From: Prosopocoilus inquinatus
Lineage: Eukaryota; Arthropoda; Insecta; Coleoptera; Lucanidae
Direction of reading: 5' to 3'
NCBI GenBank assembly: GCA_036172665.1
Contig: CM069875.1
Coordinates: 19,251,806-19,315,805 of the forward strand
Length of the DNA stretch: 64,000 bases
Under the pieces are notes generated by a model. It made no database searches. It saw nothing but the letters and a program-made list of their open reading frames with translations, and was not told the DNA's origin. Shown here piece after piece: positions 25,201 to 63,848 of this stretch (its first letter is position 1; every line of letters begins with the position of its first letter). The position numbers and the translations under genes are program-made.

Positions 25201-28200
25201 TTAAATTTAAATGACATATTTTGTAGTTTTCTGGACTCTTTAAACAGAATATAGATCTGTCAATTATTAAAAAAAAAATAATTTTAATTTAGTTCTATTT
25301 TAGTTTAAAATCACCTTTTCGTTTCTCTTGACGACTTGTTTCTCTTGACAACTTGTTTATTTACTTTTTTTCACTCCTGACGAAGCTATACATCTATAGC
25401 GAAACGTTGAGTGTTTTCCCTTCATTTTTCTGTCCGGTTTAAGATTAAAAAAAACTTTGTACTTATTATTATTTGTGTTAATAAAATAGAAATTTAAAGT
25501 GATTTGCGCTACATCTGCATTCTGATGTACTATGGCTTGCAAAAAGATCGCGTACACCTGCTTTTCGTTGTATTAAGTTGGTCTTGAGATTTAATTTGTC
25601 AGTGTCCAACAATTAAAATTCAGACTGACAGAAAACGAGTAAGTTAGAAGACGAAGAGTGATTCTCAGTAGTAGCGAATGATTATAGCTTAAATAAAAAT
25701 GCTATGATGCACAAATAATATGTGGGAAGAAGAAAGATTTGCAAATAGAAAAAATGGTTGGAGACAGATGTCCAAAAATATCGATTTACGACTCGGATAA
25801 TGCCCTTCTGATTCTATGTTTTAACAAATTTTCCAGTACTTTTGGTACCAACACGTCGAAAATTACAAATTCAACTTTTAAGAGTCTTGTCAAGTGTTAA
25901 AAAAATATATTAATAGCAAAACATAAGCAATCGACAATTCTATTTCGATTAAATTATTTTTATGGGCCATATTTGTGGAATAGCATAATATTTATTGAAC
26001 AAATCATACTGTCTGACTCATACCTTGTCAAATAGTATTCATTTCAATCTCAGTTCCTAACCTGTACGTTTGGAAACATGACAAAATTCTCAAAATACCC
26101 ATTTACAAAGCAAAAAATAGGTAAAAACTCGGCTACTTGATTTTGAAGGTGTACGCGATTTTATTGCAAGCAAGTGTACATAATGTATTCAGCTTGTCAT
26201 TTTTGACAACCCGCTCGTTCAAGGTGAAATACCCACGGTCGCGTGGCAAAACCATATGATGGCAGTACCTGTGCCCTTAGACAGAGATCGAGTGCCTTGA
26301 AATTAAAGTTTTCTGACATTTAAACGTCACAAACGTTAAATGATGCATATTTGTGAGAGTGCAAATTAATGAGTAAATGATTACTATTGAAAATAATAAC
26401 GTAATTTAGAACTTAGAAAAAATTTTTTTTTTTTTTTGTGCAAATCGTCCTTGATTGCAGTGAGAACCTCGAGCAGCCTCTGGACAGCTGTTTCAGCCCT
26501 GCTTGGGGCTTCTTCAGCAGAAACGTAGCTCGACATTCCCACTGCAGACCAAAAACGACTTGCCCAATTTATTCGCAAATGCGATGTAAGAATGATGAAC
26601 ATATAAAATAGCGACATCTTACTATCGCTTTTTGACCATTAGGAGCAAATCCCGCTTCAATTTGTCTATCCTACTGCAATGTTAGGTCAAAAAGCGATAG
26701 TAAGATGTCGCTATTTTATATGTTCGTAATTTAGAACGAAATTACATTATAAAGCTTCGCAAGCCTGGATTAGAATAAAAAAAATTGCCAAGGCCGTATA
26801 CACTCTGATTCAAAAATGTCGCACCATCGCTTAGGTAGTAATAGAGAATGTTATTAGGAGTTTTTTACTCAGTCTGAATTAGTCATCAAATTATTATTGA
26901 TATAATAGCTGCTTTCGATTATGCGTGCTAGAGTACACCTGAGTAGCTCCAAGTTTCTCAGACAATGGAAATTTGTGAAAATCGAAAATCTCCAAGCAGT
27001 TTAGAGTGCTCTGGAGTATTCCAATAATTACGTACAATCGAAAGTAGCTAACGGTTTCCAAGGATATTGGCGATATTGAATGGCAGATAAATTTATCAGG
27101 AGGTGGAAACATTGGGCACAAACCTGATACAAATGCTGTACTCTAAAATGGCCGTTAAAATATTTTTAAACAAAAGTTCAAAAAAAAATATATATAGAAA
27201 TACGTTAGTTTTTAAAATATAGTACCTCTAGAATCTTTTCCATTAAGAAAGTAATTGTTTAGCTTTTTATCATCTACCAATTTTAGGGTTTATCAGGTAA
27301 AAAAAAAATGTCTAAAAGAATTATTTCTTTACACTATCTGACTTGTTCATTTTTTTAAGTCGATGGAACTAAAAATATGAGAACTCTGAGATCATCACAA
27401 TTTAAGTCCCTGCTTTAATCAGTCAATGAATGCTTCATTATCATATCTGATAAATTGGATTGATCCTTGAAAAGGTCACATGCTACCTAAATTAATTGTA
27501 TTGTATAAAACAAATCTTCACTTCTAAATAAAGTTATAAACGTTTCTATTCTGATATTCCAGGTAAAACAGGAAGTGCAAGATGAATGCAGAAGCCGCCA
27601 ACATCAGCAGCAACAAAATTCAAGTCAGGCTCAGCAACAACAAAATCAAGTGCAAGCATCGCAACAAAATCCAACCAATCAGAATCAAATCATCAGTACT
27701 TCGTCAGCGATGCCAACAACATGGCAGTCATTAGCAACACCTGGTTCAACGGTAGCCGATTATTTATCCCACTTGCCAGCATCTACTCTACCTCTAAGCT
27801 TACACCATTTTTTAAAATACTCCGCAGAGAGCATAAAAAAAGAAACTACTCCACAACAGTTGAACCTCCAAAATAACGATAACATCAATTTATTGCACAC
27901 GAATACACTCAGTGCAAATGGTTTAACAAGTACAATAAATACCACAGCTTTAACATCCAACAGTAATGTGTTGGGAGCGAACGCAATAACTACTTTAAAT
28001 AATTTAACTACAATAAATACGTCTCAGTTACAAAACACGATTGTTATAAAAAAGAAAAAAAAGAAAAAACCAGAAAAAGAGAAGAAGCCAAGGCCGAAGC
28101 CGGGTGAGATACGATTAACCACTGCCTTGGATGGTTCAACGTTGTACTGTTGTCCTGAGTGTCACATGGCATATCCTGAGAAGGAGCTACTCGAGCAACA

Positions 28201-28597
28201 CCTAGTTGGGCATACGCTCGAGAGACGTTTTGTTTGTGATATATGTGGAGCCGGCCTGAAACGCAAGGACCACTTGACAAGACATAAGCAATCGCACAAT
28301 CCTGAACGACCCTACGTTTGCACTGTATGCCTGAAAGCTTTTAAACGTAAGGAACAGCTCACTTTACATTTTGTTATACACTCAGGTGAGAAGAGACATG
28401 TGTGCACTGAGTGTGGTAAGGGTTTCTACAGAAAAGATCATCTGAGAAAGCACACAAGGTCACACATTGCAAGACGAGTTAAAGCTGAACTGTCTCAGCA
28501 AGGAAATAGCAATACAACAAGTTTACAAATTCAGGTAGCCGCTCCTATTAATATAAATTCTTCCAGTGGTAATGCAACGCAAGGTATTTTATCCTAA
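19233..28597 (+). CDS. C2H2 zinc-finger protein 2 (paralogue, large intron, about 466 aa)
   Basis: Coding exons are 19233-19598 (ending AAG|GTAAAA) and 27563-28597 (after TTCCAG), both phase 0, separated by a 7,964-bp intron. The start lies 18 bp after an acceptor-like TTTGCAG. The protein begins MNFSPFG, like its neighbour, and has Gln/His-rich residues 60-165. The new exon opens with VKQE, a possible sumoylation site. A poly-Lys block lies at 285-300 and four C2H2 fingers at about 317-339, 345-367, 373-395 and 401-423. The finger block is very similar to that of the upstream gene, including the CCPECHMAYPEKELLEQHL stretch, so the pair arose by tandem duplication. At 28533 a GT follows LQIQ at the position where gene 1 has its second intron, so an alternative 3' exon is possible. 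The intron holds a Penelope element and other repeats. Confidence 0.87.
19599..20945. other. Intron of zinc-finger gene 2, 5' part
   Basis: AT-rich with long T runs and repeated GGTTGGGTT/GATTGA-like text at 20500-20890. No gene seen. Confidence 0.5.
20946..21362. repeat. Foldback of Penelope-type 3' ends
   Basis: Two inverted copies of a retroelement tail meet here. GAAACGTTGAGTGCTCTT is read on the minus strand at about 20946-20965 and on the plus strand at about 21217-21235. A further plus-strand copy follows at 21282-21299. Between them is a near-perfect palindrome with arms of about 34 bp at 21079-21112 and 21128-21163. The plus copy continues to ACTTACAATTTTCATCGG near 21337, and the same tail occurs at the old fragment near 55.5 kb. 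No ribozyme core is intact here. Confidence 0.65.
21363..23150. other. Intron sequence with dispersed repeats
   Basis: T-rich low-complexity DNA to about 21900. A repeat at about 22600-22750 is an inverted copy of 26195-26305; the common part includes CCATCATATG and a GTGGGTATTT-like block. A short shared motif at 22313-22345 also occurs at 26803-26840. No gene recognised. Confidence 0.5.
23150..23690 (+). pseudogene. Partial Penelope RT copy
   Basis: Encodes the segment from an NKIEK-like stretch through PKLYCIPKIHKP to the QIFGTAMG motif. The frame is broken, for example by an extra A in a run near 23400-23407. It stops at the inversion point, just before the YVDD region. It contains a stretch (about 23150-23232) that is missing from the second copy. 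Confidence 0.75.
23763..25214 (+). CDS. Penelope-like reverse transcriptase with GIY-YIG endonuclease (N-truncated)
   Basis: The listed frame is 483 codons, but sense coding begins slightly upstream (from about 23724), and no convincing natural start is present. The reverse transcriptase has FYRKP-type finger motifs (YCIPKIHKP, about 22-30), a FTNIP motif, GTAMGSPLSP (about 154-163) and the catalytic YVDD (near 190). The C-terminal GIY-YIG nuclease has YEIKCSNCNSVYIGETSQ followed by KRLDQH at about 399-425 and ends in a conserved-looking HFIEMCKI stretch. Compared with full Penelope proteins, N-terminal sequence is missing: after a TADKSN-like motif there is a jump directly to HPIFPKLYC. The enzyme would prime reverse transcription at a nick made by the GIY-YIG domain. 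Probably a defective copy. Confidence 0.85.
   Translation: MIKLIIFQKFKLCKHPIFPKLYCIPKIHKPINTPLRPIVSTIRCSPYFLSKFNSKIITQVTSKSEYFIKNSFELVEKLKQITVPNNCIIISLDVISLFTNIPKDLALKSINNRWLEIKYFTDISKSNFLEIVDLCFETSYFAFNDKFYKQIFGTAMGSPLSPALAEIVMQELEKSVINSLSFDLTLYFRYVDDVLLILPSDKVDFVLNKFNSFHNRLQFTVEKGNNNSLSFLDINIIRQNDKLITNWFHKPTWSGRYIHFHSYTPKNYKIATIISLTDRAILLSDKVFIYDNLNLIKKTLIQNSYPTNLIESVIKNRIKYLQNSNVSNNIRQTSNHKYISLPYIEPLHNTFKHIFKKHNLILASKSVNNLNLIFSNLKTKIPKLKQPNMVYEIKCSNCNSVYIGETSQNLKKRLDQHKYHIQKNNQNHSMLVEHSLVNNHNFDFDNTDILYSESNIFKRHFIEMCKIKMSPNSINKRTDFKFK
25372..25413 (+). ncRNA. Hammerhead ribozyme in Penelope tail
   Basis: CACUC pairs with GAGUG (stem I, 5 bp). The core is CUGACGA, stem II is GCUAUA/UAUAGC with loop CAUC after one extra A, and then come GAAAC and GUU, giving a two-base-pair stem III (AC/GU) and predicted cleavage after GUU. 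Minimal stem III hammerheads of this type are known in Penelope-like elements. A related copy with compensated loop changes lies at 55569-55609 on the other strand. Confidence 0.7.
25528..26178. mobile_element. Tc1-like nonautonomous element, copy 1
   Basis: TA at 25528-25529 and 26177-26178 flank inverted ends built on GGCTTGCAAAAAGATCGCGTACACC and its partner (GCTTGCAATAAAATCGCGTACACC), each shown here only in part. The 647-bp interior is noncoding. Related copies are at 38510-39198 and 39770-40109. Confidence 0.8.
26440..26730. repeat. Dispersed repeat with foldback arm
   Basis: Related to 12470-12760. It ends in a foldback in which TAAAATAGCGACATCTTACT (from 26601) is mirrored near 26690-26722. 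It contains a hammerhead-like motif, listed separately. Probably the end of a Penelope-type or retrozyme-like unit. Confidence 0.6.
26477..26523 (-). ncRNA. Candidate hammerhead ribozyme, second family
   Basis: On the minus strand UUUCUG is followed by core CUGAAGA, stem II AGCCC/GGGCU with loop CAAGCA, GAAA, palindromic CAGCUG, UC, then CAGAGG, which pairs with the initial UUUCUG (two G-U pairs). Here stem II closes directly on the core with no extra base. The related copy near 12.5 kb is decayed in the core. Confidence 0.55.
26906..27050. mobile_element. 141-bp TA-flanked miniature element
   Basis: Ends TAGCTGCTTTCGATTATGCG and the inverted TAGCTACTTTCGATTGTACG, with TA at 26906-26907 and 27049-27050. 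The interior is an imperfect palindrome. It is noncoding. Confidence 0.6.
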
Positions 28598-31217: not shown

Positions 31218-34200
31218 TCATTCTATAACTATTCTTTTCATGTAAGCATCCCATAATAAGTCTTTATATTTTTCGGCGGCTACACCTGGTTCAGGTGCGC
31301 GTGTAATTCCTCGCCCCACCACTGCAATATCAGCACCCTTTTCCAAAATGACACTCTCAGGAGAACTGTAACGCTGCCCCAAATTATCACCAGTTGCATC
31401 CAGTTGAACCCCCGGTGTTAGCTGAATAAATCCAGGTTTATCTAAAAACAGTGGAGTCTGACACACGATACCAGTTATTATATCTGAGTATTCCGCAGCT
31501 AACTTCAAAGTAGACGCTGTATAGTTCTCATTAATTAAATTGTCAGCTGCGCTCGTTTCAGCTAACAAGAACACTCCACGCTTTTCTACTCCCGTGCTTT
31601 GTTTTATAGCATCTAAAACGCTTCTGCCAGTTAATGAATGAGCCGTCACCAATTTCGCCCACGAAGAAATTCTGTAGATGCCTTTGCTGTATTGCAACTC
31701 GACGGTTTTCCCAATATCAGAAAATTTCCTGTCTTCGAATATTATAAAATTGTGTCTCTCTGCTATGTCTCGTAGTTGTTTTGGGAAATTCACATGAAAA
31801 TCGTCTATAATATCAACATGGGTTTTAAAGAGGCAAATGTGTGGCCCAACTTGCTCAGCTAAGTTTAATATATCAGTCACATTTGTCAGGTCTGCGGCCA
31901 CACATAAATTAGATTGTTTTTCATACATGATTTTAAACAGTTCGACGGTCACTGGATTCGAGGTGCATTCTAAGCGTTCGTGGAATGTCATTTTTAAACG
32001 ATCTGAAAGGAAATAAATTTATGAATTTCATTAAAGGGCAGAAATTATAAAAAAAATACACTTATCTTTATTGATTTATTTGATTAATTATTCAGGGTTC
32101 CCACTTTATTTTCATTGAAATGTTTCCTGACTCTCAGGTTTTTCCCGACTTTTCATCAAGAAACTCTCATTATTAACTGCGCTTACGCAACCTTACTAAT
32201 TTTTACATTTTTAAACATGTGCAAAAATTTGTAATTTATGTACTTTATTATGTGTATTACGGAGAAAAGAGTTGAATTCTTTTAAAAATAATAAAAAAAA
32301 TTAATAACGCATGTATAATTTAACAATGATTAATAATAAATTAGATTCTAAAAAAACAAGAAGTCTTAGTTTAGGCAACCTAACGAACATCGTCGTTTGT
32401 ACAGGTTTTTTTTAATTATTTTGCATCCTATCTAGAGGGTTTATTTTAGAAGGCAGAGCAAACCTTTAAATACAAAAGTTGTAGGGTTTTATGGCTATTA
32501 TCTTTTAAAGTTATCATAAGAAACAAAAGCGCATCGCAAATTGAAGAAAAAGATACAACTTTTGAACACCCTGTATAATGTTTACTACGATGAAAGTATA
32601 TATTTTCCGGATCTCAAAAATATATAATACCTTGACATTTGGAGGGCCCGTTCATCATATAATTAAGTTTGAAATGTTAGTATAATGACGTTTAAAAATC
32701 AAGACGGCCTGGAAAGGTGCTTACAAAAGTTCTAAATGGCCGTTTTTCCGCTCCGAAGAGGGAGCCACACTACTGTTATCTGTCAAAGATTCAAAGGTTA
32801 ACTTCAATCACAAAAATGTCTAGCAAGATACGGTTTTATGTTATAATAATTGAAAATTACCGACGCACAATCAAGAATCATAGATAAATAACACTCCTAT
32901 TAAAAAAAGTGTCACAATATTTTCAAATTAAGTATGTCTACATGACAACGGAAATTGTAAGCTGGAACATAAAACACGCTAAGTAAACATTTAAAAATCA
33001 ATTTAATAATTTAATTTGACCACTTTTCTTTGCTCAACGGTTCAAACGAAAAGTTTTATTTTCGTTAATTTGCAAATACAAAGTTTTACACCTACCTACT
33101 TATAATCTCTCCAATTTCAAATTTAAAACAAAGTCTGCGGGCAAACAGCGACAAGAAACAAATAACTTTTGGATTGCAATCAACACTTTCGCATATTTGA
33201 TGGTAAAACGCAATATTATTTACGATTTAAATTGATAAAACTGCAAATTCGAATTTATAATTGTCATAATAAAGGTGGCAACTATAGCAACAGCACGTAT
33301 TTAATCCAAAATAGTGCAGAGGGAGCCACGCTAACGACAAATGTCATAGAACAGATTTTTTTTCAAACGCGGCGGTCCGTAATAACACAACGTATTCATC
33401 CAGGCGGTCGTGCAAAATACAATAGAGATTCGAAAACTGGAAACCCTATACAATGAATTAGTAATAAAAAACAAAATTCCAGGCCGCCTTAATATTTTAA
33501 ACATTAATTTATTGATAATCTAACCTCAAATATTTCACAAATAGCTCTTCCAAATATCAACACGTTCTATATTTTTGAAATCAGGAAAATAAGATCTTTT
33601 ATGTTAGCAAACAATATACAGCCTGTTTTATTAAAAAAAAAAAAAACAAAAATTGTATCTTTTTCTCCAATTTGCAAAGTGCCTTTATTTCTTATGATAA
33701 CCCTAAAAGATAATAAGCATAAAACCCTACAAATTTTGCATTTAAAGTTTTTCTTCAGCTCCTAAAATAAACCCTCTAGATAGGGTGCAAAATATAAAAA
33801 AAAAAACCTGTACAGATGGATGTCTGTACAGTACAGAAGACCCAAAGAATATGTTTTTATTAAAAACGTAATATTTTTTTCACAATTCACTTAAATTATG
33901 CAACTTTCCTAATTTTTATATCTAAAACAATTTTCCATTTTTTTTAATTTTAGAAGTTTAGAACAAGAAAATATTTGTATTCAAATTTCTAGTTCTTCAA
34001 TTAATTTCACTGACTCCTGATTCAAAAAAGCAAACTCTCTGACCTTTCCCTATATTGAACCTTTTCTCAATTCCCTGACTTTTCCAGGTATTTCCGATGA
34101 GAGGGGAACCCTGTTATTTACCTATTAAAAAAAAATTGTGAATAATTATAAGATAAATTGGTTAAATAAATGAAATTCATTATATTTATTGATCCACTTT

Positions 34201-52892: not shown

Positions 52893-54080
52893 TTATTTTT
52901 TAGAACCGCTAACATATAATTTCATTTGGTCGGGGGCAACGATACCGGTATAAGGGCGTTGTGTCACCTGATGCCCTTCCACATCACTGACAACATAACG
53001 ATCTCGATCAAGTACATTCTTAATAACATAGGGACCCTTAAATCGTGGTATTAGCTTTTTATTAACACCTGGAGTAGTATCGACATTTGTCACCATTACG
53101 TAATCACCAATGTCGTACTTAGTTGGGCTTTTACGCTTTTTATTGTATCGTCTCTCATTCTCCTGTTGGGATTTGGAGATAGATTGAGCTGCAGCTTCTC
53201 TAATTTTACAAAGGCTTCTATCATTCTCTGATTCCTTCTCCAAAATCAAACGCAAATTATCTTTTACTACGCCGAATTGACCTACACCAAATAACAATCT
53301 ACTAGGAGTTTCTCCAGTTGTTCGACAAACTGTATTGTTTATGGTGAACTCGACCTTATCAAGCACCGAAGCCCATTGGTCTGGAGTGTCACATAGTTTT
53401 GACAGCATGGGCACTATTGTGCGATGCACGCGCTCAGCTTGTCCATTAGCCCGCGGCGTGCCTACAGCAATTAAAACATGATCTATCAACTCATCTTTCA
53501 AAAACTGTTCAAATTCTTGTGAGGTAAAGGCAGCTCCTCGATCGGATACAATTTTCTTTGGTTTACTATACATCCGATGATACGTTTTGAGGTGTCGTAT
53601 GCATTCTTCGGCAGAGGTGGACTTACAAGGGAACAACTTTAAAAATTTTGTGAATCCATCTATGACCGTTAATATGTATTTGTCACCGTTTGGCGTTTTT
53701 TCAAAAGGACCGCAATGATCAATATGGAGACCTTGAAATGGTAACGAACCTTTCTCTAAATTATGCAGAAATCCTTCGGCCTTTCCACTTAATGGAGAAA
53801 AGGTAATGCATTTCAAACAATTAGCAATATAGTTTTTAATCTTAAGTTTCATGGACGGAAACCAATATATTTGAAGAATGCGTTCGGCAACTTTATCTGG
53901 TCCGACGTAACCCAAATCGTCATGACATGATCGGATCATGTTATTCTCCAAACACTCTGGCACGTAGAATAACATCTTATCTGCCTGTTTTCGATATACA
54001 CAGCCGTCGCGTAACTCAAACAATTTATGTTCTACCTTTTGTAGGCCTTCGCGCAGTTTAGCTATTTCGGGGTCTCTGTT
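52893..54080 (-). pseudogene. Old Ty3/gypsy integrase region
   Basis: An uninterrupted 376-codon frame (54023-52893) follows an in-frame TAA at about 54078-54080, which cuts it from the RNase H part; the reading phase is otherwise unbroken. It has the zinc-binding N-terminal region (CHDDLGYVG...CLKC, where a Tyr stands at the usual second His), the catalytic core D (HIDHCGPF), D (VSDRGAAF) and E (NGQAERVHRT), and a C-terminal IPRFKGPYVI motif. It would insert reverse-transcribed DNA. The element as a whole is dead. Confidence 0.88.
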
Positions 54081-55490
54081 TTATTCAATCATTAGTGTCT
54101 GATCCAGCGTGTTTGGTTCTAACACAAATATGCCGTGGCATCTACTTAGGGCATCTACGTGTCCCATTCGTTTACCAGGGCGATGCACTATTTCATAATC
54201 GTAGTTTTGAAGAAACATAGCCCATCTAGAGATCCGCGGGTTAATATTGCGTTTACTGAGTGTTAGCCTAAAGCTATCGCAATCCGTAACAATACGAAAT
54301 CTTATACCAGACAAGTAAATTTCAAACCGTTTGATTGCATACACAACGGCAAGGCATTCTAGTTCAAAGCTAGCATACTTGGATTCAGCAGCAGTTGAAC
54401 GCTTGCTAAAATAAGAAATTGGTTTAAAAACACCATCGTGTTGCTTCTGCAAAAGAATTGCACCAAACCCTAACGAACTCGCGTCGCAATGTAACTCTGT
54501 CTCCAATTCCGGTGAAAAGACTGTTAATATGGGCTGTGAAGACAATTTTTCTTTAAGCGTTTCAAAAATCTGTGCCTCAGTCGGGCCAAATATAAATTTA
54601 GAATCTTTTCTAATTAAATCGTACAAAGGTTTCGCGATTACTGAGAAGTTGGGCACAAATCGCCTCAAATAGCTAGCTAGAGCTACAAAACGATGGACAT
54701 CTTTCGTGCAACGTGGTACAGGATAATTCACGATAGATTCGATATTTAAACTACTCGGTCGTATACCGTGTTCGTCAATCAAATAGCCTAAGTAAGTTAT
54801 TTCTGTATAGAGAAACGAGCATTTGTCCAATCGAAACATTAGTTTGTTTTCCAGCAAGTTCGAAAATCTCACATAAAATCTCAATATGTTCTTCAATTGT
54901 TTCCGTAGAGATTAAAATATCGTCAAGATAGAGTAAAATTTTGTTATGACGAATCATTGGTTCGAAAATGCTGTGCACATATCTTTGAAATTCTCGCGGG
55001 GCATTGGTTAGCCCGAACGGCATATGGAGGTATTCGTACTGTCCCAGTGGAGTAACGAATGATGTGTACTGGACAGACGAATCGGCCATTTTTACATGGT
55101 GGAAACCATTCTTTAAATCAAGACTACTAAAATAGCGTGTATAATTTTATTCAATTCGCGAAAATCTACACAAAGTCTAGTTTCGCCGTTCTTTTTCTTG
55201 ACCAAAACAATAGGGCTGGCGTAAGGCGACTTACTTGGTCGAATTATTTTGTTTTTCTCTAAGTCGTCTAAAATTTGGCGTAATTTCTCTTTGTCGGAAA
55301 ATGATAGTCGTCGCGGATTAGAACTAATAGGTTGATCGTGCTTTAACCTTATTGTCATTTCCCATTCCCCTTCTGTTTTATCAGAATCTAATCCTTTCGT
55401 ATAAACCGAGTTATAAATAGATTTGACCTGATCAGAGATGTCATAAGGGATTTTCGGGTTAACATTAAGATTATGTTTAACGTTAATTGA
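54081..55490 (-). pseudogene. Old Ty3/gypsy reverse transcriptase and RNase H, broken
   Basis: Pieces read in order on the minus strand. 55358-55113 holds the IVLVKKKNGETRLCVDFREL motif. A frameshift near 55135 follows, with apparent loss of the conserved segment between FREL and the next palm motif. 55089-54840 has MPFGLTNAP and catalytic YLDD. Another frameshift near 54830-54860 leads into 54896-54081 with the thumb, RNase H (ELHCDASSLGFGAIL, FELECLAVVYAI, TDCDSF) and HVDALSR. Multiple independent lesions indicate an old copy. Confidence 0.88.
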
Positions 55491-55723
55491 AGTTTGTTCT
55501 TGTCCGATGAAAATTGTAAGTACAAAGTTTTTTTAATCTCAAACCGGACAGAAAAATGAATAGAACACATTCAACGTTTCGCTATAGATTTATAGCTTCG
55601 TCAGGAGTGAAAAAAGAGAAACAAGTCGTCAAGAGAAACGAAAAGGTAACATGATTTTAAACTAAAATACGAGTTGTCTGGAAAAAAGAGAAAAGTAACT
55701 AGAACTAAATTAAAACTATGTAT
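55490..55723 (-). repeat. Penelope 3'-end fragment inside old gypsy
   Basis: The reverse complement matches the Penelope tail at 25260-25460: the same CTCCTGACGAAGCTATA ribozyme region, TTTCTGTCCGGTTT and an AAACTTTGTACTTA end. It is a 5'-truncated insertion. The inner border is uncertain by about 30 bp, because ACTTACAATTTTCATCGG is also found after the related tail at 21337. The younger gypsy inserted at its other edge. Confidence 0.8.
55569..55609 (-). ncRNA. Hammerhead-like motif in Penelope fragment
   Basis: Minus strand: CACUC, CUGACGA, A, stem II GCUAUA/UAUAGC with loop AAUC, GAAAC, GUU, GAAUG. The stem II loop and stem I differ from the 25372-25413 copy (one stem I mismatch), while the core is unchanged. 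Confidence 0.6.
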
Positions 55724-56050
55724 TGTTACGTTTCTAGGGTTTGAGTTTATTTATTTAAACGAATAAAACACTCGATAAAAACTTAACCGTAATTTAATAA
55801 AGCTTAAAAACTAATTTATTTCTAACAATTTATTTTCACACTAAAATCTAACTTCGACTATCGCTGTTCGAATTCGACTGACTGGTGAGTCAACTCCGGG
55901 CGATTTTATATCTACTGCTGGCGTCTGGAAGTCTCTATGCTGGAAGATTCTAGTTTGCTCGATATAGGCCCCGAACGCGTGACGGCCGATGACACATCGA
56001 AGCGGACCGACTTCTTGACGCCTTGCGCTAAGTCAGGTTGGCTCGCCACA
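55724..56050 (-). repeat. 3' LTR of young gypsy
   Basis: 327 bp, TG...CA. The polyprotein stop (56033-56035) lies inside its first 18 bp. Identical to the other LTR by direct reading. Confidence 0.95.
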
Positions 56051-59000
56051 CTGTCCCCTTCTTAGAAACGTTTCGTCTCGAAATGTTCCTGGTGATAGTC
56101 TTGAAGGAGGGTGTCGGAATCTACATGCTGGCCCATTCTTGCAACTTCCCGCCTGGAAGAAGTAACAGTCTACGGTTTTGCTGTTGCTGACTGTTGCCTG
56201 TGGGTGGTGGCTGCAGACTAGGACTTCAATTCCCGTTCTGTGGAAGATGACTTCCAGCATGCTTCGAATTACTCTCCAGTCTAGTCCGTCCAATCCGCAG
56301 CCCAATTTGGGGATGGCTAACTTCATCTGATGGTTCTCTATTAGCTGTCTCCTCAGGCTATATAGGGCTCTCCACATACTTTGATAGTCAGGTTTACCGC
56401 TTGATGTCTTCTTAGTGACTAAATAATGCACGTGGCGCCTCCGATCTGCCGTCGAATCAATGATCTGCAAGCTCTTGCCTACCACGGGATGCTGTCTTCG
56501 TAGCTCCTCGATTTGGCCAAATTTCTTCCTAAACACCTGAGCGATTCCTTTGGACATTTTCAGGTCTTCTGCTACGCAGTGGGCCAGACTGTACTCCAGT
56601 GGCACTTTAAAGAGATCTTGTTGCTTCTCCGTGGTCACTCCAAACCGTGCCTTGCTTCCTTCGGCGTGATGAGACATGAAGGTTTCGAAGTTCACTTCGG
56701 AAACTTGCGCCCTTTGTACTGTCCCTTCATCTGCTTCTCCATGGTAAGGGGCTATCCGGTTGAAGTGGATTACTTTGGGTTTGCCATGGGGGACCTTCTT
56801 GATGCGGTAAACGACGTCGTTGATCCGTTTCATCACTTTGTAAGGACCTTCCCAAGAGGTCTGTAATTTTGGGGAGAGGCCTCGACGTCTTTGGGGGTTA
56901 TAAAGCCAGACCAGTGCTCCAGGTTGGTATCCCCCGTGTTGAGCGTTGATGTCATAGTGTTCCTTCATTCGATCGCTGGCCGTCTGTATATTGTGACGCA
57001 CTTGGTTGTGGATGTCGTCCATTTTCCTGCGTAATTTCCTCACGTAATCTTCGTCGGCAGAGACTTCGCCAGGCTTCACACCAAACTTCAGGTCGCAGGG
57101 CAGTCTCGGCTCTCGCCCGAATACCACTTTCGCGGGAGTCTCCCCTGTTGTCTCATGAAAAGATGAGCGGTATGCCATTAGAAACAGGGGAATGTACGTG
57201 TCCCAGTCCCTCTGATGATCGGAAACGACCTTGGACAAATGTCGGTTGATGGTTCTATTGAACCTTTCCACCATTCCGTCCGACTGTGGGTGGAGTGCAG
57301 TTGTTCTAGTTTTTCGTACGCCGAGCAGAGTACACACGTTCTTGAACAAGGCCGATTCAAAGTTCCTTCCTTGGTCTGAATGCAGTTCCATAGGTGCACC
57401 ATACCGACTGATCCATTCCCTGACAAGGACTTCCGCAATAGTGACTGCCTCTTGGTTAGGTAGGGCGTAAGCTTCAACCCACTTGCTAAAGTAGTCCATT
57501 ACCACGACGATGTACTTGTTTCCACCATTCGTTTCTGGAAACGGGCCGGCTACATCGATGGCAACTCTCTCAAAAGGACTTCCAACGTTGTACTGTCTCA
57601 TGGGAGCCTTACCCCGCCTGTGGGGACCGTTACTGGCTGCGCAGACTGTACACTTTCTGCACCAATCCTTCACGTCTTCCTTGCAGTTCACCCAGTAAAA
57701 TCTTTCGCGCACCTTCTCCATAGTCTTCTTAACTCCCAGATGCCCTCCCGAAGTTCCATCGTGAAGTTCCCTCAGAACTTCTGGCACCCTATTCTTGGGG
57801 ATCAGTAACTGTGTCTTCTGTTCCATGCCTTCCTGATTCTCTATGCTTCGTCTCAGAAGACCACGATCCAACACTATGGAGTCCCACTGCGCCCAGTATG
57901 ATTTTACGGACGGTGCACATGGTGCTACCTCTTCCCAGGTAGGCCTCGCGTCCCTGCTTTTCCATTCTAGCACTAATTTCAAATCCGGGTCGTTCTCCTG
58001 GTCTCTTCGCAGTTCTTCGCCTTGCCATTTGTCATCAACAATGGCTGTCCTCGCAGTCGTGGCTATCTTCTCGTCCAAACGACTACAGTGCTTACAGTCT
58101 TCGGCACAGGGTCTTCTCGACAGAGCATCGGCATTTCGATGGCTAGTTCCTGCCCGATGCTGAATTTCAAAATCGTACTCCTGAAGTCGTTCGATCCATC
58201 GTGCAACTTGCCCTTCTGGGTTCTTGAAACGGAGAAGCCATTTTAGAGCGGCGTGGTCGGTCCTCAGCAGGAAGCGTCTACCATACAAGTACTTGTAGAA
58301 GTGTTCTATCGTTTTTACGACGGCTAGCAATTCCCTTCTTGTGACGCAATAGTTTCGTTCCGGCTTTGATAGGACTTTACTGAAGTAGCCGATCACCTTC
58401 TCTTGCCCCTCTTGTATCTGGGAGAGTACGCCACCAATCCCAACGTTGCTAGCATCTGTGTCCACGACGAACTTGCCTTCCGGGAGAGGATAACTCAGAA
58501 TAGGAGCACTAACCAAGTACTGCTTTAGTTGTTCAAAGCCAATTTGACACTGTTGGTCCCATTCAAATGGACGACCTTCTTCAGTGAGTTTTGTTAACGG
58601 CTTAGCAATGTCTGCAAATCCAGGAACGTAGCGCCGATAGTAAGTGCACAGGCCAAGGAAACTCCTTATTTGGTGTTTATTTCTGGGAGTTGGCCAGTCT
58701 TTCACCACCTGAATCTTCACAGGGTCCACGGCGATTCCATTTCCATTAACAATGTGCCCCAGGTAATTCACTTCCTTCTGGAACAGGTGACACTTCTTGA
58801 GGCTAAGCTTTAGTCCAGCTCCGCGAAGCCGCTGGAACACTCCTTCCAGGTTCCTTAGGTGGTCGTCGAACGTCTTTCCCACGACAATTATGTCGTCAAG
58901 GTACACCATGCACGTTGTCCAGGACAGACCTTTCAGAACCGTCTCCATTAACCTCTCGAATGTCGCTGGGGCATTACATAATCCGAATGGCATCACTGTG

Positions 59001-61363
59001 AACTGCCACAGACCCATACCAATGGAAAACGCCGTCTTTTCTCGATCTTCGGGCGCCAGCTCCACTTGCCAATATCCACTCTTTAAGTCCAAAGTTGAGA
59101 AGATCTTTGAGCCGGCCAGGGTGTCCAGGGTATCATCAATCCGTGGCAAGGGATAGCTGTCCTTCTTGGTGACATTATTGAGTAACCGGTAGTCTACACA
59201 GAACCTGGTGGACCCATCCTTCTTCTTCACAAGCACTACTGGTGACGCCCACGGGCTGCTTGATGGTTCTATTACATTATCCTTTTCCATCTCGCGAATA
59301 ATGCGTTCCGCTTCCTCACGCTTCGCCAACGGTAATCGCCTTGGAGCTTGACGGATAGGTCTTTCTTCTCCAGTCTCTATTTTGTGTTTCACGACATCAG
59401 TTCTTCCCTTGGATCCATTTTCTACCTCAAATACATCTTGATAGCGGCCGATCAGATTCTTTGCTTTTGTCTTCTGGTCTGCAGTCAATTCCTGGGCTGT
59501 TGACATAACCATTTCCCATAATTTCTTTGGGACTTTCGCTTCTGGCACGTTTGTTTCAAGTTGCCGGGAGATGGAGGACACCATGGTGCAGCTTCCCAAG
59601 ATTGTTCCTTTCTTGATATTGACGGAGAAACAATTGACGTTCATCAGGCGGACAGGTACTTCCTTCTTCGCCATCAACAACATTTTTCCAACGAGGACTC
59701 CTCTTCCAATCCTTTGATCATCAGTATTAGGTTCAACCATAATGACTTGCCCATCTTGAAAAACACCGTCCAGTTTTGCGTCGACGATAACCTCAGTCCT
59801 GCTGGGTAATACAACGTCTTCAGCGAGGACTACTCGAGCGGCCACGTCCCCTCGTTGATGAAGAACCAACTCCTCATTATTGACCGCCATCACGCCACTC
59901 TTTAAGTCCAATTGGAACCCGTGGGCACACATGACGTCCATGCCCAAAATTGCCTCGTCCTCTATATCTGCCACCAGTGCACGGTGTTTTATTGGAGTTG
60001 AACCAATGGTGATGATAACCTCTACTTCACCGTGGACAGTTGCTGATGTTCCAGTTGCAGTTTTCAGTCTCCACTTGGTCGGCTCGGTGCGTCCAGATGA
60101 CTTAATGACGTCGGGTCTTAGGATGGTCTTCGTCGCACCCGTATCCAACAACATGGTGTGAGGAATGTCATCAATGGTGACATCCACGAAGACACTGCTG
60201 GTTAACTGCCGTAGGAATATTACTTGGTTGGCTTTCGTCTTTGGGGGCCTTTGAATACGGGTCGACGTTTGCCCCTCTGCACCGACCCGGCTTAGTTTAA
60301 CTGTGGCTTCCTTGGATCCTGTCTGGGCTTTGGACATCGCCTGCGAACATGTCCTTCCTCCTGGCAATTCCAGCGGCTTCTTCTGCTTGAAGACCTGTTC
60401 CACAATGCGGCGAACATCCTCGGCGGTGGCATACTCTCTGGCTCGCTCCTTTATAGTAGATCCCACCTTGGCGTTAGCGGATTCTTCCTCTTCATCCTCT
60501 TGGAAGTCCATAGCCGCTCGCACCTTGACATGCCCTCTTGAGACTCGTCTCGCTGCTTCAAATTCCAAGGCATAAGCTAATGCGTTCTTGGACGTCTTCG
60601 GATGGGTCATTCTCAATGCCTGCTGGTTGTCTGGGTCACGGATTCCATCTATGAAGGTCTGCACCGTCAAACATTTGAGGAATTCAACAGGAGCTGTGGG
60701 ATATGCCAACTGGGCCAGACGCGCAACGTCTGCTTCGAATTCCTGAAGACTTTCTCCGGATTTCTGACAGCGATTCCTCAACTGCGCATGGTATACCTCG
60801 GTCAGATGGGCCTGTCCGTAACGCATTTCCATCCTATTCACAAGCTTGTCGAAGTCTTCTTGTTCCTCTGGCGGCATCGTCTGTAGCACATCGATAGCGT
60901 CTCCTCTCAAGGCCACAATTAACGAAGTGGCTTTTTCGCTGGCCGTCCATCTGTTCGCCTTTGCTGCTGCTTCGAACTGTTTGAAGTAGTTGGGCCAAGA
61001 AGATTTTCCATCGAACGTCGGTGGTTTTATTTTTAATTTCGAATTTGCTGCTGGTCCTTCCACAATTCGGGTTTCATTATTTTCTAGTACTTCTATTGGT
61101 GGCTGATCCCCGAACACTCGCAACCCCGCCATGATTTGTTCCAGATTTTTGATTTTGTTATCCTGCTGGAATATTATTTCTTCCACATTTTCTTGCAGGT
61201 TTCTTGTTTCTTCCGATATTTTTACCACTAGTTTATCTTCGAGTCCTTTCGTCTGTTCTAGAAATTCACCCTTCAAATTTCCGGACTGTTCTAGAAGTTT
61301 CTCGTCGAAATTTCTGGATTGCTCCAGAAATTTCTCGTCTAAGTCTCTAGATTGTTCCAACAA
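56033..61363 (-). CDS. Gag-Pol polyprotein with C-terminal macrodomain and CCCH finger
   Basis: 1,776 codons as listed, but the frame is open further upstream to the frameshift near 61510, so the listed first codon (TTG) is not the real start. Order by residue: coiled repeats 1-80; capsid-type Gag 115-280; protease with LLDTGAT at 405-411; RT 690-870 with YLDD at 821-824; RNase H about 960-1080 (DTDAS, ADALSRR); integrase with H1201/H1208/C1235/C1238 and D1270, D1330, E1366; GPYKV motif near 1506; macrodomain 1585-1720; CCCH finger 1733-1751. No CCHC knuckle lies between capsid and protease. The stop falls within the 3' LTR. Antisense frames over this region are shadows. Confidence 0.95.
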   Translation of the reverse strand: MLEQSRDLDEKFLEQSRNFDEKLLEQSGNLKGEFLEQTKGLEDKLVVKISEETRNLQENVEEIIFQQDNKIKNLEQIMAGLRVFGDQPPIEVLENNETRIVEGPAANSKLKIKPPTFDGKSSWPNYFKQFEAAAKANRWTASEKATSLIVALRGDAIDVLQTMPPEEQEDFDKLVNRMEMRYGQAHLTEVYHAQLRNRCQKSGESLQEFEADVARLAQLAYPTAPVEFLKCLTVQTFIDGIRDPDNQQALRMTHPKTSKNALAYALEFEAARRVSRGHVKVRAAMDFQEDEEEESANAKVGSTIKERAREYATAEDVRRIVEQVFKQKKPLELPGGRTCSQAMSKAQTGSKEATVKLSRVGAEGQTSTRIQRPPKTKANQVIFLRQLTSSVFVDVTIDDIPHTMLLDTGATKTILRPDVIKSSGRTEPTKWRLKTATGTSATVHGEVEVIITIGSTPIKHRALVADIEDEAILGMDVMCAHGFQLDLKSGVMAVNNEELVLHQRGDVAARVVLAEDVVLPSRTEVIVDAKLDGVFQDGQVIMVEPNTDDQRIGRGVLVGKMLLMAKKEVPVRLMNVNCFSVNIKKGTILGSCTMVSSISRQLETNVPEAKVPKKLWEMVMSTAQELTADQKTKAKNLIGRYQDVFEVENGSKGRTDVVKHKIETGEERPIRQAPRRLPLAKREEAERIIREMEKDNVIEPSSSPWASPVVLVKKKDGSTRFCVDYRLLNNVTKKDSYPLPRIDDTLDTLAGSKIFSTLDLKSGYWQVELAPEDREKTAFSIGMGLWQFTVMPFGLCNAPATFERLMETVLKGLSWTTCMVYLDDIIVVGKTFDDHLRNLEGVFQRLRGAGLKLSLKKCHLFQKEVNYLGHIVNGNGIAVDPVKIQVVKDWPTPRNKHQIRSFLGLCTYYRRYVPGFADIAKPLTKLTEEGRPFEWDQQCQIGFEQLKQYLVSAPILSYPLPEGKFVVDTDASNVGIGGVLSQIQEGQEKVIGYFSKVLSKPERNYCVTRRELLAVVKTIEHFYKYLYGRRFLLRTDHAALKWLLRFKNPEGQVARWIERLQEYDFEIQHRAGTSHRNADALSRRPCAEDCKHCSRLDEKIATTARTAIVDDKWQGEELRRDQENDPDLKLVLEWKSRDARPTWEEVAPCAPSVKSYWAQWDSIVLDRGLLRRSIENQEGMEQKTQLLIPKNRVPEVLRELHDGTSGGHLGVKKTMEKVRERFYWVNCKEDVKDWCRKCTVCAASNGPHRRGKAPMRQYNVGSPFERVAIDVAGPFPETNGGNKYIVVVMDYFSKWVEAYALPNQEAVTIAEVLVREWISRYGAPMELHSDQGRNFESALFKNVCTLLGVRKTRTTALHPQSDGMVERFNRTINRHLSKVVSDHQRDWDTYIPLFLMAYRSSFHETTGETPAKVVFGREPRLPCDLKFGVKPGEVSADEDYVRKLRRKMDDIHNQVRHNIQTASDRMKEHYDINAQHGGYQPGALVWLYNPQRRRGLSPKLQTSWEGPYKVMKRINDVVYRIKKVPHGKPKVIHFNRIAPYHGEADEGTVQRAQVSEVNFETFMSHHAEGSKARFGVTTEKQQDLFKVPLEYSLAHCVAEDLKMSKGIAQVFRKKFGQIEELRRQHPVVGKSLQIIDSTADRRRHVHYLVTKKTSSGKPDYQSMWRALYSLRRQLIENHQMKLAIPKLGCGLDGLDWRVIRSMLEVIFHRTGIEVLVCSHHPQATVSNSKTVDCYFFQAGSCKNGPACRFRHPPSRLSPGTFRDETFLRRGQCGEPT
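56111..56167 (-). other. CCCH zinc finger at polyprotein C-terminus
   Basis: Residues 1733-1751: CYFFQAGSCKNGPACRFRH, pattern C-x7-C-x5-C-x3-H. This is a typical RNA-binding CCCH finger. I infer that it may supply the nucleic-acid binding normally provided by the missing Gag knuckle. Confidence 0.85.
56204..56611 (-). other. TARG1/OARD1-like macrodomain in Pol
   Basis: Residues about 1585-1720. Seen: SLAHCVAEDLKMSKGIAQVF, then YLVTKKTSSGKP and IPKLGCGLDGLDW. These match the diagnostic blocks of the terminal ADP-ribose protein glycohydrolase TARG1 (OARD1), whose catalytic Lys and Asp lie in the TKK and GCGLD motifs; both are present here (K1651/K1652, D1692). It would bind ADP-ribose and might remove ADP-ribose from proteins or nucleic acid. 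The enzymatic role is inference. The fold call rests on motif matches, not on a search. Confidence 0.85.
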
Positions 61364-61640
61364 TTTATTTTGTAATTTGTCGAAATTTCCAGATTGTTCT
61401 AGAAGCTTCTCCTCTAAATTTCTGGATTGTTCTCGAAGTTCTTCCTTGAAACTTCCAGATTGTTCTCGAAGTTCTTCCTTGAAATTTCCAGATTGTTCTA
61501 GAAGCTTTTCTCTAAATTTCCAGACTGTTCTTGAAACTTCTCGTCCAAATTTCTGGATTGTTCTCGAAGTTCGTCCTTGAAATTTCCAGATTGTTCTAGA
61601 AGCTTTTGCTCTAAATTTCTGGATTGTTCTCGAAGTTCAT
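61230..61640 (-). repeat. 33-bp coding minisatellite in gag
   Basis: About a dozen units of 33 bp encode 11-residue repeats of the form LLEQSGNFKDE or LREQSRNLDEK, probably a long coiled coil. Units differ by a few substitutions. The frameshift of this copy falls in one of them. Confidence 0.85.
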
Positions 61641-61845
61641 CTTTCAGGATTTTATTAAAATCGGCGGGACCACACGAAATTTCGAAAAGGAAGGTCTCTG
61701 GATCTTCGCCAGCTGTCAACAAATCGGATCGGAGACGCTGTTGAAGTGCGCCTTTCAAACCACAGGTTTCTAACTCTCGTTCTTCCAATTCGGTTTTTAA
61801 TTCGGCCACTTTTAAGTCTTTCAACAACACTTTTCTCGTAGCCAT
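61498..61845 (-). CDS. Gag N-terminus with SAP-like domain, ends at a frameshift
   Basis: 116 codons beginning MATRKVLLKDLKVAEL. Residues about 8-45 form a SAP-type helix-extension-helix (LKVAELKTELEERELE...LQQRL), a DNA/chromatin-binding fold seen at the N-terminus of some insect Gag proteins. The 11-residue coiled-coil repeats follow. Compared with neighbouring repeat units, one base is missing at about 61508-61513, so this frame stops at 61498-61500 while the Gag-Pol frame continues. It could be a real lesion or a sequencing error in a T-rich run. A programmed shift here, upstream of the capsid, seems unlikely. Confidence 0.88.
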   Translation of the reverse strand: MATRKVLLKDLKVAELKTELEERELETCGLKGALQQRLRSDLLTAGEDPETFLFEISCGPADFNKILKDELREQSRNLEQKLLEQSGNFKDELREQSRNLDEKFQEQSGNLEKSF

Positions 61846-61938: not shown

Positions 61939-62265
61939 TGTTACGTTTCTAGGGTTTGAGTTTATTTATTTAAACGAATAAAACACTCGATAAAAACTTA
62001 ACCGTAATTTAATAAAGCTTAAAAACTAATTTATTTCTAACAATTTATTTTCACACTAAAATCTAACTTCGACTATCGCTGTTCGAATTCGACTGACTGG
62101 TGAGTCAACTCCGGGCGATTTTATATCTACTGCTGGCGTCTGGAAGTCTCTATGCTGGAAGATTCTAGTTTGCTCGATATAGGCCCCGAACGCGTGACGG
62201 CCGATGACACATCGAAGCGGACCGACTTCTTGACGCCTTGCGCTAAGTCAGGTTGGCTCGCCACA
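61939..62265 (-). repeat. 5' LTR of young gypsy
   Basis: 327 bp, TG...CA. It drives minus-strand transcription. Identical to 55724-56050 and followed by target duplicate GTAT. Confidence 0.95.
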
Positions 62266-63848
62266 GTATGTTTAATATTCACAGGTTCATCTACATAACT
62301 AATGTTCATAATTTGATCAACAAAACTAACGTTCTCGGTTGGTAACAATTCGGGCTGCTCACATTTAATTTCTGAATTTTTCCCAAATGAGACTTTTACA
62401 CTTAGGGACGAGACAAAGTCTCTTCCTAAAAGTGCAGGACAATTTAAAGTATCATTTGTTACTACATATAAGTCAAGGTTAACACTAATACCATCGACTT
62501 CAACATCTTTCTGAAATATACCTAAGATATCAAGCTTAGATCCGTTAATTCCACAAAAAGAATGATTACTCGGTACTTTCCCTAATTTTGAATCAACCGT
62601 GACATATTTATTTTTAATCAAACTTATTCGCGAGCCCGTATCAATCATAGCCTTGAAAGAATATTTACATTTGCTTACATTATCATCTGAGGTGTGGTAT
62701 TTTACTGTTACCATATACGGGTTAAGTAAAGTTGTTGTTGGAGCGCCAGGCGTACTAGTGTAGGCAACATTCGTTGAGGTAGTATGGCTGGATTGTTTCT
62801 TCTTTTTCTTCGGACAATTTTGGATGCGATGATCTAACTCACCACATTCGAAGCAAGATCCCTTCTCTCGTCGTGGTTGTCGGCAATCCGAAGATAGATG
62901 ACCCATTCTATTACAATTGTAGCACCTTACAGCGCTATGACGTGGTTCAGATGTATTCTTCGGCAGTTGTAGAATACGGTTAGACGTCTTGACTACTTTC
63001 TGGACTGTCGACTTTTCATCTAAGGAAATGTTCTCGAAAGCAGCGAGAAGGTCTCCTTCGTCCGAAAAACGGGCCATGTTCGCCTGTCGGCTTAACTGAT
63101 TGTCTGATATTCCTTCAATCACATATTCAATAATCTCCTCATCGGGTATTGGGATGCGATTTCCATGGTAATAGTCACTAAATGTTTCATTAGAGCGCCA
63201 TATACGCTTCTCGAATTCCTTTCGTAACATCATCTTCGCGGGGCGGTGATCAAACATGGTCTTCATCTGCTCCAACAATTGCGCATAAGTCATCTTCAGA
63301 TAGTCTGGTTTTGAGTGAAACCAGTCAAGAGCTTGGCCTTTTAGTTTAGAGCTGATAAGAATCTTCATCATGGCATCGTCCAGCTTGTATGTTTCTCGTA
63401 CCAGTTCCAGTCGTTGCTGCCACGTGGAGTATAAACCAGTGTTTCCGTGAAAGTCACTCAAAAGTCCCCCAACTGCTTTTATATTCACGTTGGTCGGTAA
63501 AGAAGCTCTCTCCCTAGTATCAGGGATTTCGTTGACTTGAGAATTTTATCCTTGTCGTAATAAACGAAGTTCTCGTTCCAAGATATCTCGTTCTCGTCTA
63601 AGCAGTTCCATCTCGCGGCGCATAAGATCTTATTCGGTGGTAATGGCGGAGAGTCCTTTACCGATATAATTGTAGCATTTGGTTTATCTTTTTGTTGCGC
63701 TGACTTGGCCCAAATGTCCAAGTCACGTTCCTCTAATCTGGCTACTTTTCGTACCTGACGTAGATAAATTAAATTCATGAAGCACATCTTTAAGTTCAAC
63801 AACGGTGTACGCGTTCCCATTTTTTGCAGCCATTTCGTAATAACTCAT
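62127..63848 (-). pseudogene. Old Ty3/gypsy Gag-protease, interrupted
   Basis: Read on the minus strand, an ATG at 63846-63848 starts a SAP-like N-terminus (YTVVELKDVLHEF), soon broken by frame changes. A later coiled segment (MELLRRERDILERELR) meets an in-frame TAA near 63550. From 63488 a long frame runs to about 62270 with capsid, two CCHC knuckles (CYNCNRMGHLSSDC, CFECGELDHRIQNC), protease MIDTGSR and LLGRDF. It is cut at 62269 by the young element; the remaining codons to 62127 belong to that element's LTR. The RT part resumes beyond the Penelope fragment at 55490. Multiple lesions indicate an old copy. Confidence 0.9.

What the first reader, a model, noticed from the sequence alone, without database searches (positions are those of the whole stretch)
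56204..56611. Retrotransposon polyprotein carries a TARG1/OARD1-like macrodomain
An ADP-ribose hydrolase-like macrodomain sits after the integrase, in frame, in a young Ty3/gypsy element with RT and integrase intact. The lysine of the TKK motif and the GCGLD aspartate, the catalytic pair of TARG1, are conserved. Macrodomains in RNA viruses counter host ADP-ribosylation; a retrotransposon with one may oppose PARP signalling at integration nicks or in antiviral defence. I know of no standard gypsy clade defined by this module.
Basis: partly seen in the sequence, partly recalled or inferred. Interest (0 to 1): 0.92.

Follow-up and report, generated by a model that had tools for sequence, protein, structure and literature searches.

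The report
Retrotransposon with built-in ADP-ribose eraser
A young jumping gene present in at least 150 near-identical copies in a likely beetle genome carries, fused behind its integrase, a domain of the TARG1 type that is predicted to remove ADP-ribose tags and that shows the DNA signature of being kept by selection, so such elements would likely be resisting a host tagging defence.

The parts
61939..62265 (-). 5' LTR, 327 bp, TGT...ACA
   Evidence: exact repeat of 55724-56050
62266..62269 (.). target site duplication GTAT (other copy 55720-55723)
61723..61824 (-). SAP domain in a 115-aa ORF 61498-61845; in this copy in another frame than Gag-Pol
   Evidence: Pfam SAP 1.6e-07; frames differ; SAP and IN p58C are listed in one predicted protein for many Aromia rows
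61202..61670 (-). array of 33-nt (11-residue) repeats between SAP and gag, across which the frame changes
56033..61363 (-). Gag-Pol-macro-CCCH open frame; last 6 codons (stop included) lie inside the 3' LTR
60704..60916 (-). Retrotransposon gag domain (weak), no CCHC knuckle found
   Evidence: Pfam 2e-04, 22.0 bits against a cut-off of 24.1; no CCHC pattern
59930..60187 (-). aspartic protease, DTG
   Evidence: Pfam 1.2e-10
58748..59230 (-). reverse transcriptase, YLDD
   Evidence: Pfam 9.9e-39
58175..58561 (-). RNase H
   Evidence: Pfam 3.8e-34
57629..57802 (-). integrase zinc-binding H2C2
   Evidence: Pfam 6.3e-21
57296..57577 (-). integrase core, D-D-35-E
   Evidence: Pfam 4.8e-13
56747..56848 (-). 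integrase p58 C-terminal domain
   Evidence: Pfam 6.8e-12
56213..56623 (-). TARG1/OARD1-type macrodomain with the K84 and D125 equivalents
56105..56179 (-). CCCH zinc finger, C-x7-C-x5-C-x3-H
   Evidence: Pfam 3.1e-06, above cut-off
55724..56050 (-). 3' LTR, preceded by a purine-rich tract (about 56051-56063)

Best explanation
The element is a Ty3/gypsy-type LTR retrotransposon whose Gag-Pol frame ends in a TARG1-type macrodomain and a CCCH finger, and this tail is predicted to travel in the particle with Pol, to bind the element's RNA through the finger, and likely to strip host-added ADP-ribose from the element's own RNA, cDNA ends or proteins. Shown: the domains, their order and frame, the intact catalytic pair, recurrence in many beetles, depletion of replacement changes, and other families in the same genome with the macrodomain at two other positions in Pol. 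Inferred: packaging with Pol (because Pol is what the three architectures share), RNA binding by the finger (it is the only zinc finger found outside IN, and Gag shows no CCHC knuckle), hydrolase activity (by homology to TARG1, which removes ADP-ribose from Asp/Glu and from phosphate ends of RNA and DNA), and a host ADP-ribosylation that hinders the element. One old capture of TARG1 by insect retroelements, moved later between positions in Pol, is the simplest reading of the careful trees; several captures are not excluded.
For: TARG1 by sequence and fold. In 28 representatives chosen for having K84 and D125 equivalents, D20, H32 and G43 equivalents also never vary. Fusions: 203 of 324 macro-bearing rows have an IN tail before (BLAST or short motif) and/or a CCCH pattern after; of 178 with at least 110 macro residues 169 keep K and D (many are near-copies); of 34 representatives at 80% identity, 28. 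Four predicted proteins hold PR, RT, RNase H, IN, macro and CCCH together. The 28 catalytic IN-macro rows are one clade: 99/89, 99% of bootstrap trees (92/86 and 90%). Own genome: the 150 best-ranked macro copies (of 1,420 first-look candidates) are 98-100% identical, 148 without inner stops. Selection, in 44 ungapped of 50 copies sampled by an integrase core of 100% identity: 48 replacement and 41 silent changes against 62.5 and 26.5 expected (P 0.0015); shared variants 8 and 14 against 15.7 and 6.3 (P 0.0005); wrong-frame controls 1.26 and 1.81; K and D 44 of 44. PR-macro-RT at L099-L101. RNase H end-macro-IN: 10 places match P0317 over its whole length in one stretch, 6 of them with one stop inside. 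TARG1 activities: PMC8501950 and PMC8053099, passages.
Against: No activity, packaging or RNA binding was tested. Six of 34 representatives (P0259, P0270, P0253, P0260, P0019, P0256) have lost K and/or D yet keep the fusion; they are one sub-branch (92), while P0259 falls apart from the other five. So hydrolysis is not needed in every lineage. Some branches lack the CCCH finger (P0024, P0025, P0027). The macrodomain (59-61% identity to four full-Pol relatives) changes faster than RT (81-86%) and about as fast as PR (49-63%). The p58C and linker tests for selection were not significant (0.70, P 0.15; 0.66, P 0.23). In parp-1 mutant flies mobile elements go mostly up, some down, many without significance, and the authors cannot exclude an indirect effect (PMC7712786). 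Overexpressed PARP1 did not inhibit human LINE-1 (PMC4441479 passage).
Confidence: 0.5

Rival explanations
1. The macrodomain works as a reader, not an eraser: it likely binds mono- or poly-ADP-ribose at damaged or open chromatin and guides the integrase there.
For: It follows the integrase in the window family; six representatives keep the fused domain without K and/or D; TARG1 goes to damage sites in a PAR-dependent way (PMC8053099 passage).
Against: 28 of 34 representatives and 44 of 44 own-genome copies keep the catalytic pair, which binding alone would not require; in other families of the same genome the domain sits between PR and RT or before IN.
Confidence: 0.15
2. The macro-CCCH tail likely serves mainly as an RNA-binding substitute for the missing nucleocapsid knuckle, with ADP-ribose chemistry secondary.
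For: No CCHC pattern in the pieces of Gag and Pol of the window copy; the CCCH finger is the only zinc finger found outside IN; TARG1 itself binds RNA oligomers (PMC8053099 passage).
Against: The CCCH is missing in the P0024/P0025/P0027 branch while the macrodomain and its catalytic pair stay; L096 has both CCHC knuckles and a macrodomain.
Confidence: 0.15
3. The domain would undo PARP-1-dependent silencing of the element's chromatin and so raise its transcription.
For: Mobile elements, gypsy-superfamily ones among them, are mostly up in parp-1 mutant flies, several of them without significance (PMC7712786 passages).
Against: That effect may be indirect (same paper). Whether TARG1 acts on chains is told differently: MAR only in PMC8053099, mono- and poly-ADP-ribose in PMC8501950. 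A domain tied into Pol is an awkward chromatin factor (inference).
Confidence: 0.1
4. A passenger: a captured host domain without a role that spreads with a successful element.
For: High copy number alone would carry it.
Against: Depletion of replacement changes, conserved pocket residues over deep divergence, and the same domain at three positions.
Confidence: 0.06

Closest known systems
TARG1/OARD1 (C6orf130), human and insect host genes
   Different: host gene is a free small protein (or a longer host protein in insects); here fused into Gag-Pol with a CCCH finger, and on a branch of its own
Macro-domain ORFs of fish endogenous retroviruses (Basta et al. 2009, seen only as cited in PMC4977317)
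   Same: an LTR retroelement with an added macro domain
   Different: vertebrate retroviruses, additional ORFs; whether those are TARG1-type or part of Pol I could not check (paper not held)
Bdelloid rotifer LTR retrotransposons with DEDDy nuclease or GDSL esterase ORF3 (PMC5408684, passages)
   Same: captured enzyme in an LTR element; the DEDDy type looks exchanged between retroelement types, as from a pool
   Different: other enzymes, separate ORF3; here in frame within Pol, at three positions
Macrodomains of alphaviruses, rubella and other viruses
   Same: fold; reversal of host ADP-ribosylation shown for several (PMC8053099 passage)
DarG antitoxin macrodomain
   Different: 21-23% identity, bacterial toxin-antitoxin context

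Membership tests
TARG1/OARD1-type macrodomain | best match to TARG1 among macrodomains, sequence and fold | tested here: met
TARG1/OARD1-type macrodomain | catalytic Lys84 and Asp125 equivalents | tested here: met
   44 of 44 own-genome copies. K84 is named in PMC8501950; the D125 label is recalled
TARG1/OARD1-type macrodomain | Pfam Macro above its gathering score (general macro profile, not TARG1-specific) | tested here: inconclusive
   20.1 bits against 22, so below; relatives P0002 24.1 and P0025 32.7 pass, others such as P0003 and P0009 (17.4) do not
TARG1/OARD1-type macrodomain | ADP-ribose hydrolase activity | not testable with these tools
   bench assay needed
Ty3/gypsy (Metaviridae) LTR retrotransposon | LTRs with target site duplication | tested here: met
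Ty3/gypsy (Metaviridae) LTR retrotransposon | order PR-RT-RNase H-IN | tested here: met
Ty3/gypsy (Metaviridae) LTR retrotransposon | place on an RT tree with named clades | not tested
   no named reference set was at hand
Errantivirus-like (env-bearing) element | env gene after Pol | tested here: not met
   macro-CCCH, stop and LTR follow IN directly; Pfam finds no env domain in the pieces
Fish macro-domain endogenous retroviruses | shared origin of the macrodomain | not tested
   sequences of those elements not at hand

The most novel reading that the evidence does not exclude
Insect LTR retrotransposons own a mobile TARG1-derived eraser module: captured early, moved to three places in Pol (after IN, between RNase H and IN, between PR and RT), and needed to clear host ADP-ribose from the element's genome or proteins. 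This would make ADP-ribosylation a general anti-retrotransposon defence of insects, with retroelements carrying the counter-defence in their particles.
Probability: 0.3. Interest if true: 0.9.

Novelty: new variant of a known kind. Interest (0 to 1): 0.74.

Why it matters
ADP-ribosylation as a defence, and macrodomains as its counter, are known from RNA viruses and phages. A lineage of abundant, recently inserted retrotransposons that keeps a TARG1-type domain under selection, with relatives that have it at other positions in Pol, would extend that conflict to mobile DNA in insects and gives a direct way to ask what PARPs do to retroelements: the substrate of the captured enzyme should point to the modified target. 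It also warns annotators: some insect proteins named OARD1-like (for example of Macrosteles, Diabrotica, Leptinotarsa) look like pieces of retrotransposons.

Tried and rejected
Passenger or chance: disfavoured through recurrence and codon statistics. A first count of variants in L008-L045 (26 sites, 17 at third positions) was set aside because those loci had been picked by similarity of the macrodomain itself; I resampled through the integrase core. In that sample IN cannot be compared, as it was picked for 100% identity, and 6 of 50 copies were left out for gaps or truncation. The 50 are the 30 loci and 20 of the next 24 of its 150 rows (4 passed over by hand). One search is the same count on the first 30.

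Number of captures: open. In one search (58 hand-picked rows, without the six non-catalytic ones) the AU test rejects IN-macro plus PR-macro-RT alone as one clade (p 0.012). With P0317, P0323, P0035 and P0038 added they are one side of a branch against host and other rows (99/95), and (61 rows) the same kind of split stands at 99/95, P0095 lying on the host side. But in the larger quick tree (130 rows) L096-L099 lie beside insect host genes (80-91) and P0317 elsewhere, apart from IN-macro. Groups were named after seeing trees. Further AU tests: PR-macro-RT as one clade p 0.037; IN-macro with P0317 and P0095 p 0.14; IN-macro with the long insect host genes p 0.07. Support for the IN-macro clade varies: 99 (28 rows), 94 and 86 (37 rows), 92/86, 99/89. 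P0323, P0035 and P0038 are unassigned.

Diverged fusions in viral contigs: none; seven macrodomain loci were not read. Rfam: nothing at gathering scores. The priming tRNA and the RT clade were not identified. Papers: searches list no paper on an insect gypsy element with a macrodomain, none on SAP-gag gypsy elements; the library is open access only, searches list 25 of 14,095 and 20 of 2,231, and only a few listed papers were opened. PMC6338049: word search only, no macrodomain. PMC7016691: passages, macro domain in an endogenous shrimp nimavirus.

Full report
What is there. Between 55724 and 62265 on the minus strand lies an LTR retrotransposon: two 327-bp LTRs, identical base for base, flanked by GTAT on both sides. 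Identical LTRs mean a recent insertion. From 5' to 3' the internal part has a SAP domain, an array of 11-residue repeats, a weakly scored gag, aspartic protease, RT, RNase H, integrase (H2C2, core, p58 C-terminal domain), a macrodomain and a CCCH finger, with a purine-rich tract before the 3' LTR and the stop codon just inside it. From gag to CCCH it is one open frame. In this copy the SAP part is in another frame, the change lying within the 33-nt repeats; some other copies in the genome have open frames of 1,900 to 2,000 codons around the macrodomain, so one frame is probably the family's state (inference).

A lineage, not a curiosity. Three protein searches gave 119, 212 and 803 matches, of which 119, 120 and 120 are listed. 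Many listed proteins have IN tail, macrodomain and CCCH finger in that order. Source names are Aromia moschata, Molorchus, Exocentrus, Callosobruchus, Acanthoscelides, Gonioctena, Diabrotica, Leptinotarsa, Harmonia, Brassicogethes and Pyrocoelia (beetles by my own knowledge; some entries are fragments that lack one of the three parts). Macrodomains of Macrosteles and Nilaparvata, annotated OARD1-like, fall in the same group. Of 324 rows with a macrodomain (the window and 323 of 329 proteins) 203 have an IN tail before and/or a CCCH after it; 178 of these have at least 110 macro residues, and 169 of the 178 keep K and D. As a large part are near-copies from Aromia, the fair count is by representatives at 80% identity: 28 of 34. 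The six exceptions sit together (92); one of them (P0259) stands apart. In the 28 others, which were chosen for K and D, the D20, H32 and G43 equivalents never vary either. In the careful tree these 28 are one clade, 99/89, in 99% of bootstrap trees; in the other trees, with other rows, support for the group is 86 to 99.

In its own genome. The window lies in a 650-Mb assembly. The 150 best-ranked macro copies are 98 to 100% identical, 148 without inner stops; 1,420 first-look candidates suggest many more. All 150 scored integrase cores are identical in protein (of 4,050 candidates). Fifty of those copies were read; 44 align over the macrodomain without gaps. Replacement changes are fewer and silent ones more than random placement gives: 48 and 41 against 62.5 and 26.5, P 0.0015; for variants shared by copies 8 and 14 against 15.7 and 6.3, P 0.0005; the two wrong frames give ratios of 1.26 and 1.81; four copies have a stop. 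The p58C and linker pieces show weaker, non-significant trends. So the sources of these copies were under selection for the macrodomain's protein.

Three places in Pol. Searching the same genome with a long beetle protein that carries a TARG1 domain (P0329) found the likely host gene (C5:3752541-3753233) and further retroelement families. In L099-L101 the macrodomain lies between protease and RT; in L098 between a short protease match and RNase H; in L096 and L097 after the protease. A metagenomic protein, P0317, has it between the end of RNase H and the integrase. Ten places in the window's genome match P0317 over its whole length in one stretch, 6 of them with one stop inside; their macrodomains were not read one by one. 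A family with 1,784-codon frames matches in two pieces, RNase H end with macro and then IN; four further places match RNase H end and IN with only about 95 bases between. In the careful trees all of these that were included, except P0095, lie on one side of a branch against host and other TARG1 rows (99/95); the larger quick tree does not show this. One old capture followed by moves within Pol or between elements is the simplest reading; several captures are possible. The host gene of this genome sits next to that of the weevil Rhynchophorus (95/82), which is why I call the genome likely beetle; no name was available.

How it most likely works. What the three arrangements share is membership of Pol, which in LTR elements is taken into the particle (general knowledge). 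TARG1 removes ADP-ribose from Asp/Glu, from thymidine in DNA and from phosphate ends of RNA and double-stranded DNA (PMC8501950, PMC8053099; passages). In the window family Gag shows no CCHC knuckle and the only zinc finger found outside IN is the CCCH next to the macrodomain. I therefore favour an eraser carried with Pol on the element's nucleic acids, keeping RNA, cDNA ends or particle proteins free of host ADP-ribose (inferred). Host pressure of this kind is plausible but not shown for insects: in parp-1 mutant flies mobile elements are mostly up, perhaps indirectly and many without significance (PMC7712786); the PARP relative ZAP (PARP13) restricts human LINE-1, largely through its CCCH fingers, while overexpressed PARP1 did not (PMC4441479 passages). 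The rows that lost the catalytic pair warn that binding alone may suffice in some lineages.

Novelty. Captured enzymes in LTR elements are known, also as a shared pool (PMC5408684 passages), and macro-domain ORFs are reported for fish endogenous retroviruses (PMC4977317 passage). I found no report of a macrodomain-bearing gypsy lineage in insects (open-access text, long lists cut, few papers opened). New variant of a known kind.

Noticed in passing
52893-55202 and 62127-63488, minus: An older gypsy-type element (weak gag, CCHC and PR on one side; RT, RNase H, IN on the other) flanks the young one, so the young element probably inserted into it.
   Followed up: partly
P0259, P0270, P0253, P0260, P0019, P0256 (Diabrotica and metagenomes): Rows that keep IN-macro-CCCH but have lost the catalytic Lys and/or Asp: a possible switch from eraser to reader.
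   Followed up: partly
P0095 (metagenome): RNase H followed by a TARG1-type macrodomain that groups with a Biomphalaria row, not with the insect elements: perhaps a separate capture.
   Followed up: partly
P0323, P0035, P0038: Macrodomain proteins on the element side of the careful trees whose own nature is unassigned; P0323 starts with a cysteine-rich stretch.
   Followed up: no
61202-61670: Eleven-residue repeats (33 nt) between SAP and gag, the place where this copy changes frame.
   Followed up: partly
L001-L007: Seven IMG/VR contigs of 19 to 394 kb encode TARG1-like macrodomains (31-38% identity).
   Followed up: no
Kadipiro virus VP8 (BFVD A0A8E0KJF2): Best viral structure match of the model, 40% identity: a TARG1-like macrodomain in a virus that I recall as mosquito-associated.
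   Followed up: no
G000:C5:32925636-32927039 and similar (1,238-codon frames): Elements related to P0317 with RNase H end and IN only about 95 bases apart, so no macrodomain there: a with/without pair for dating the insertion.
   Followed up: no
23763-25214 plus; 7516-8622 plus: RT with GIY-YIG (Penelope-type by its domains) and a DDE_Tnp_1_7 transposase (piggyBac-type, recalled).
   Followed up: no
31218-31991 minus; 15375-16310 and 27575-28597 plus: Orotidine-5'-phosphate decarboxylase and two C2H2 finger reading frames, likely host genes.
   Followed up: no
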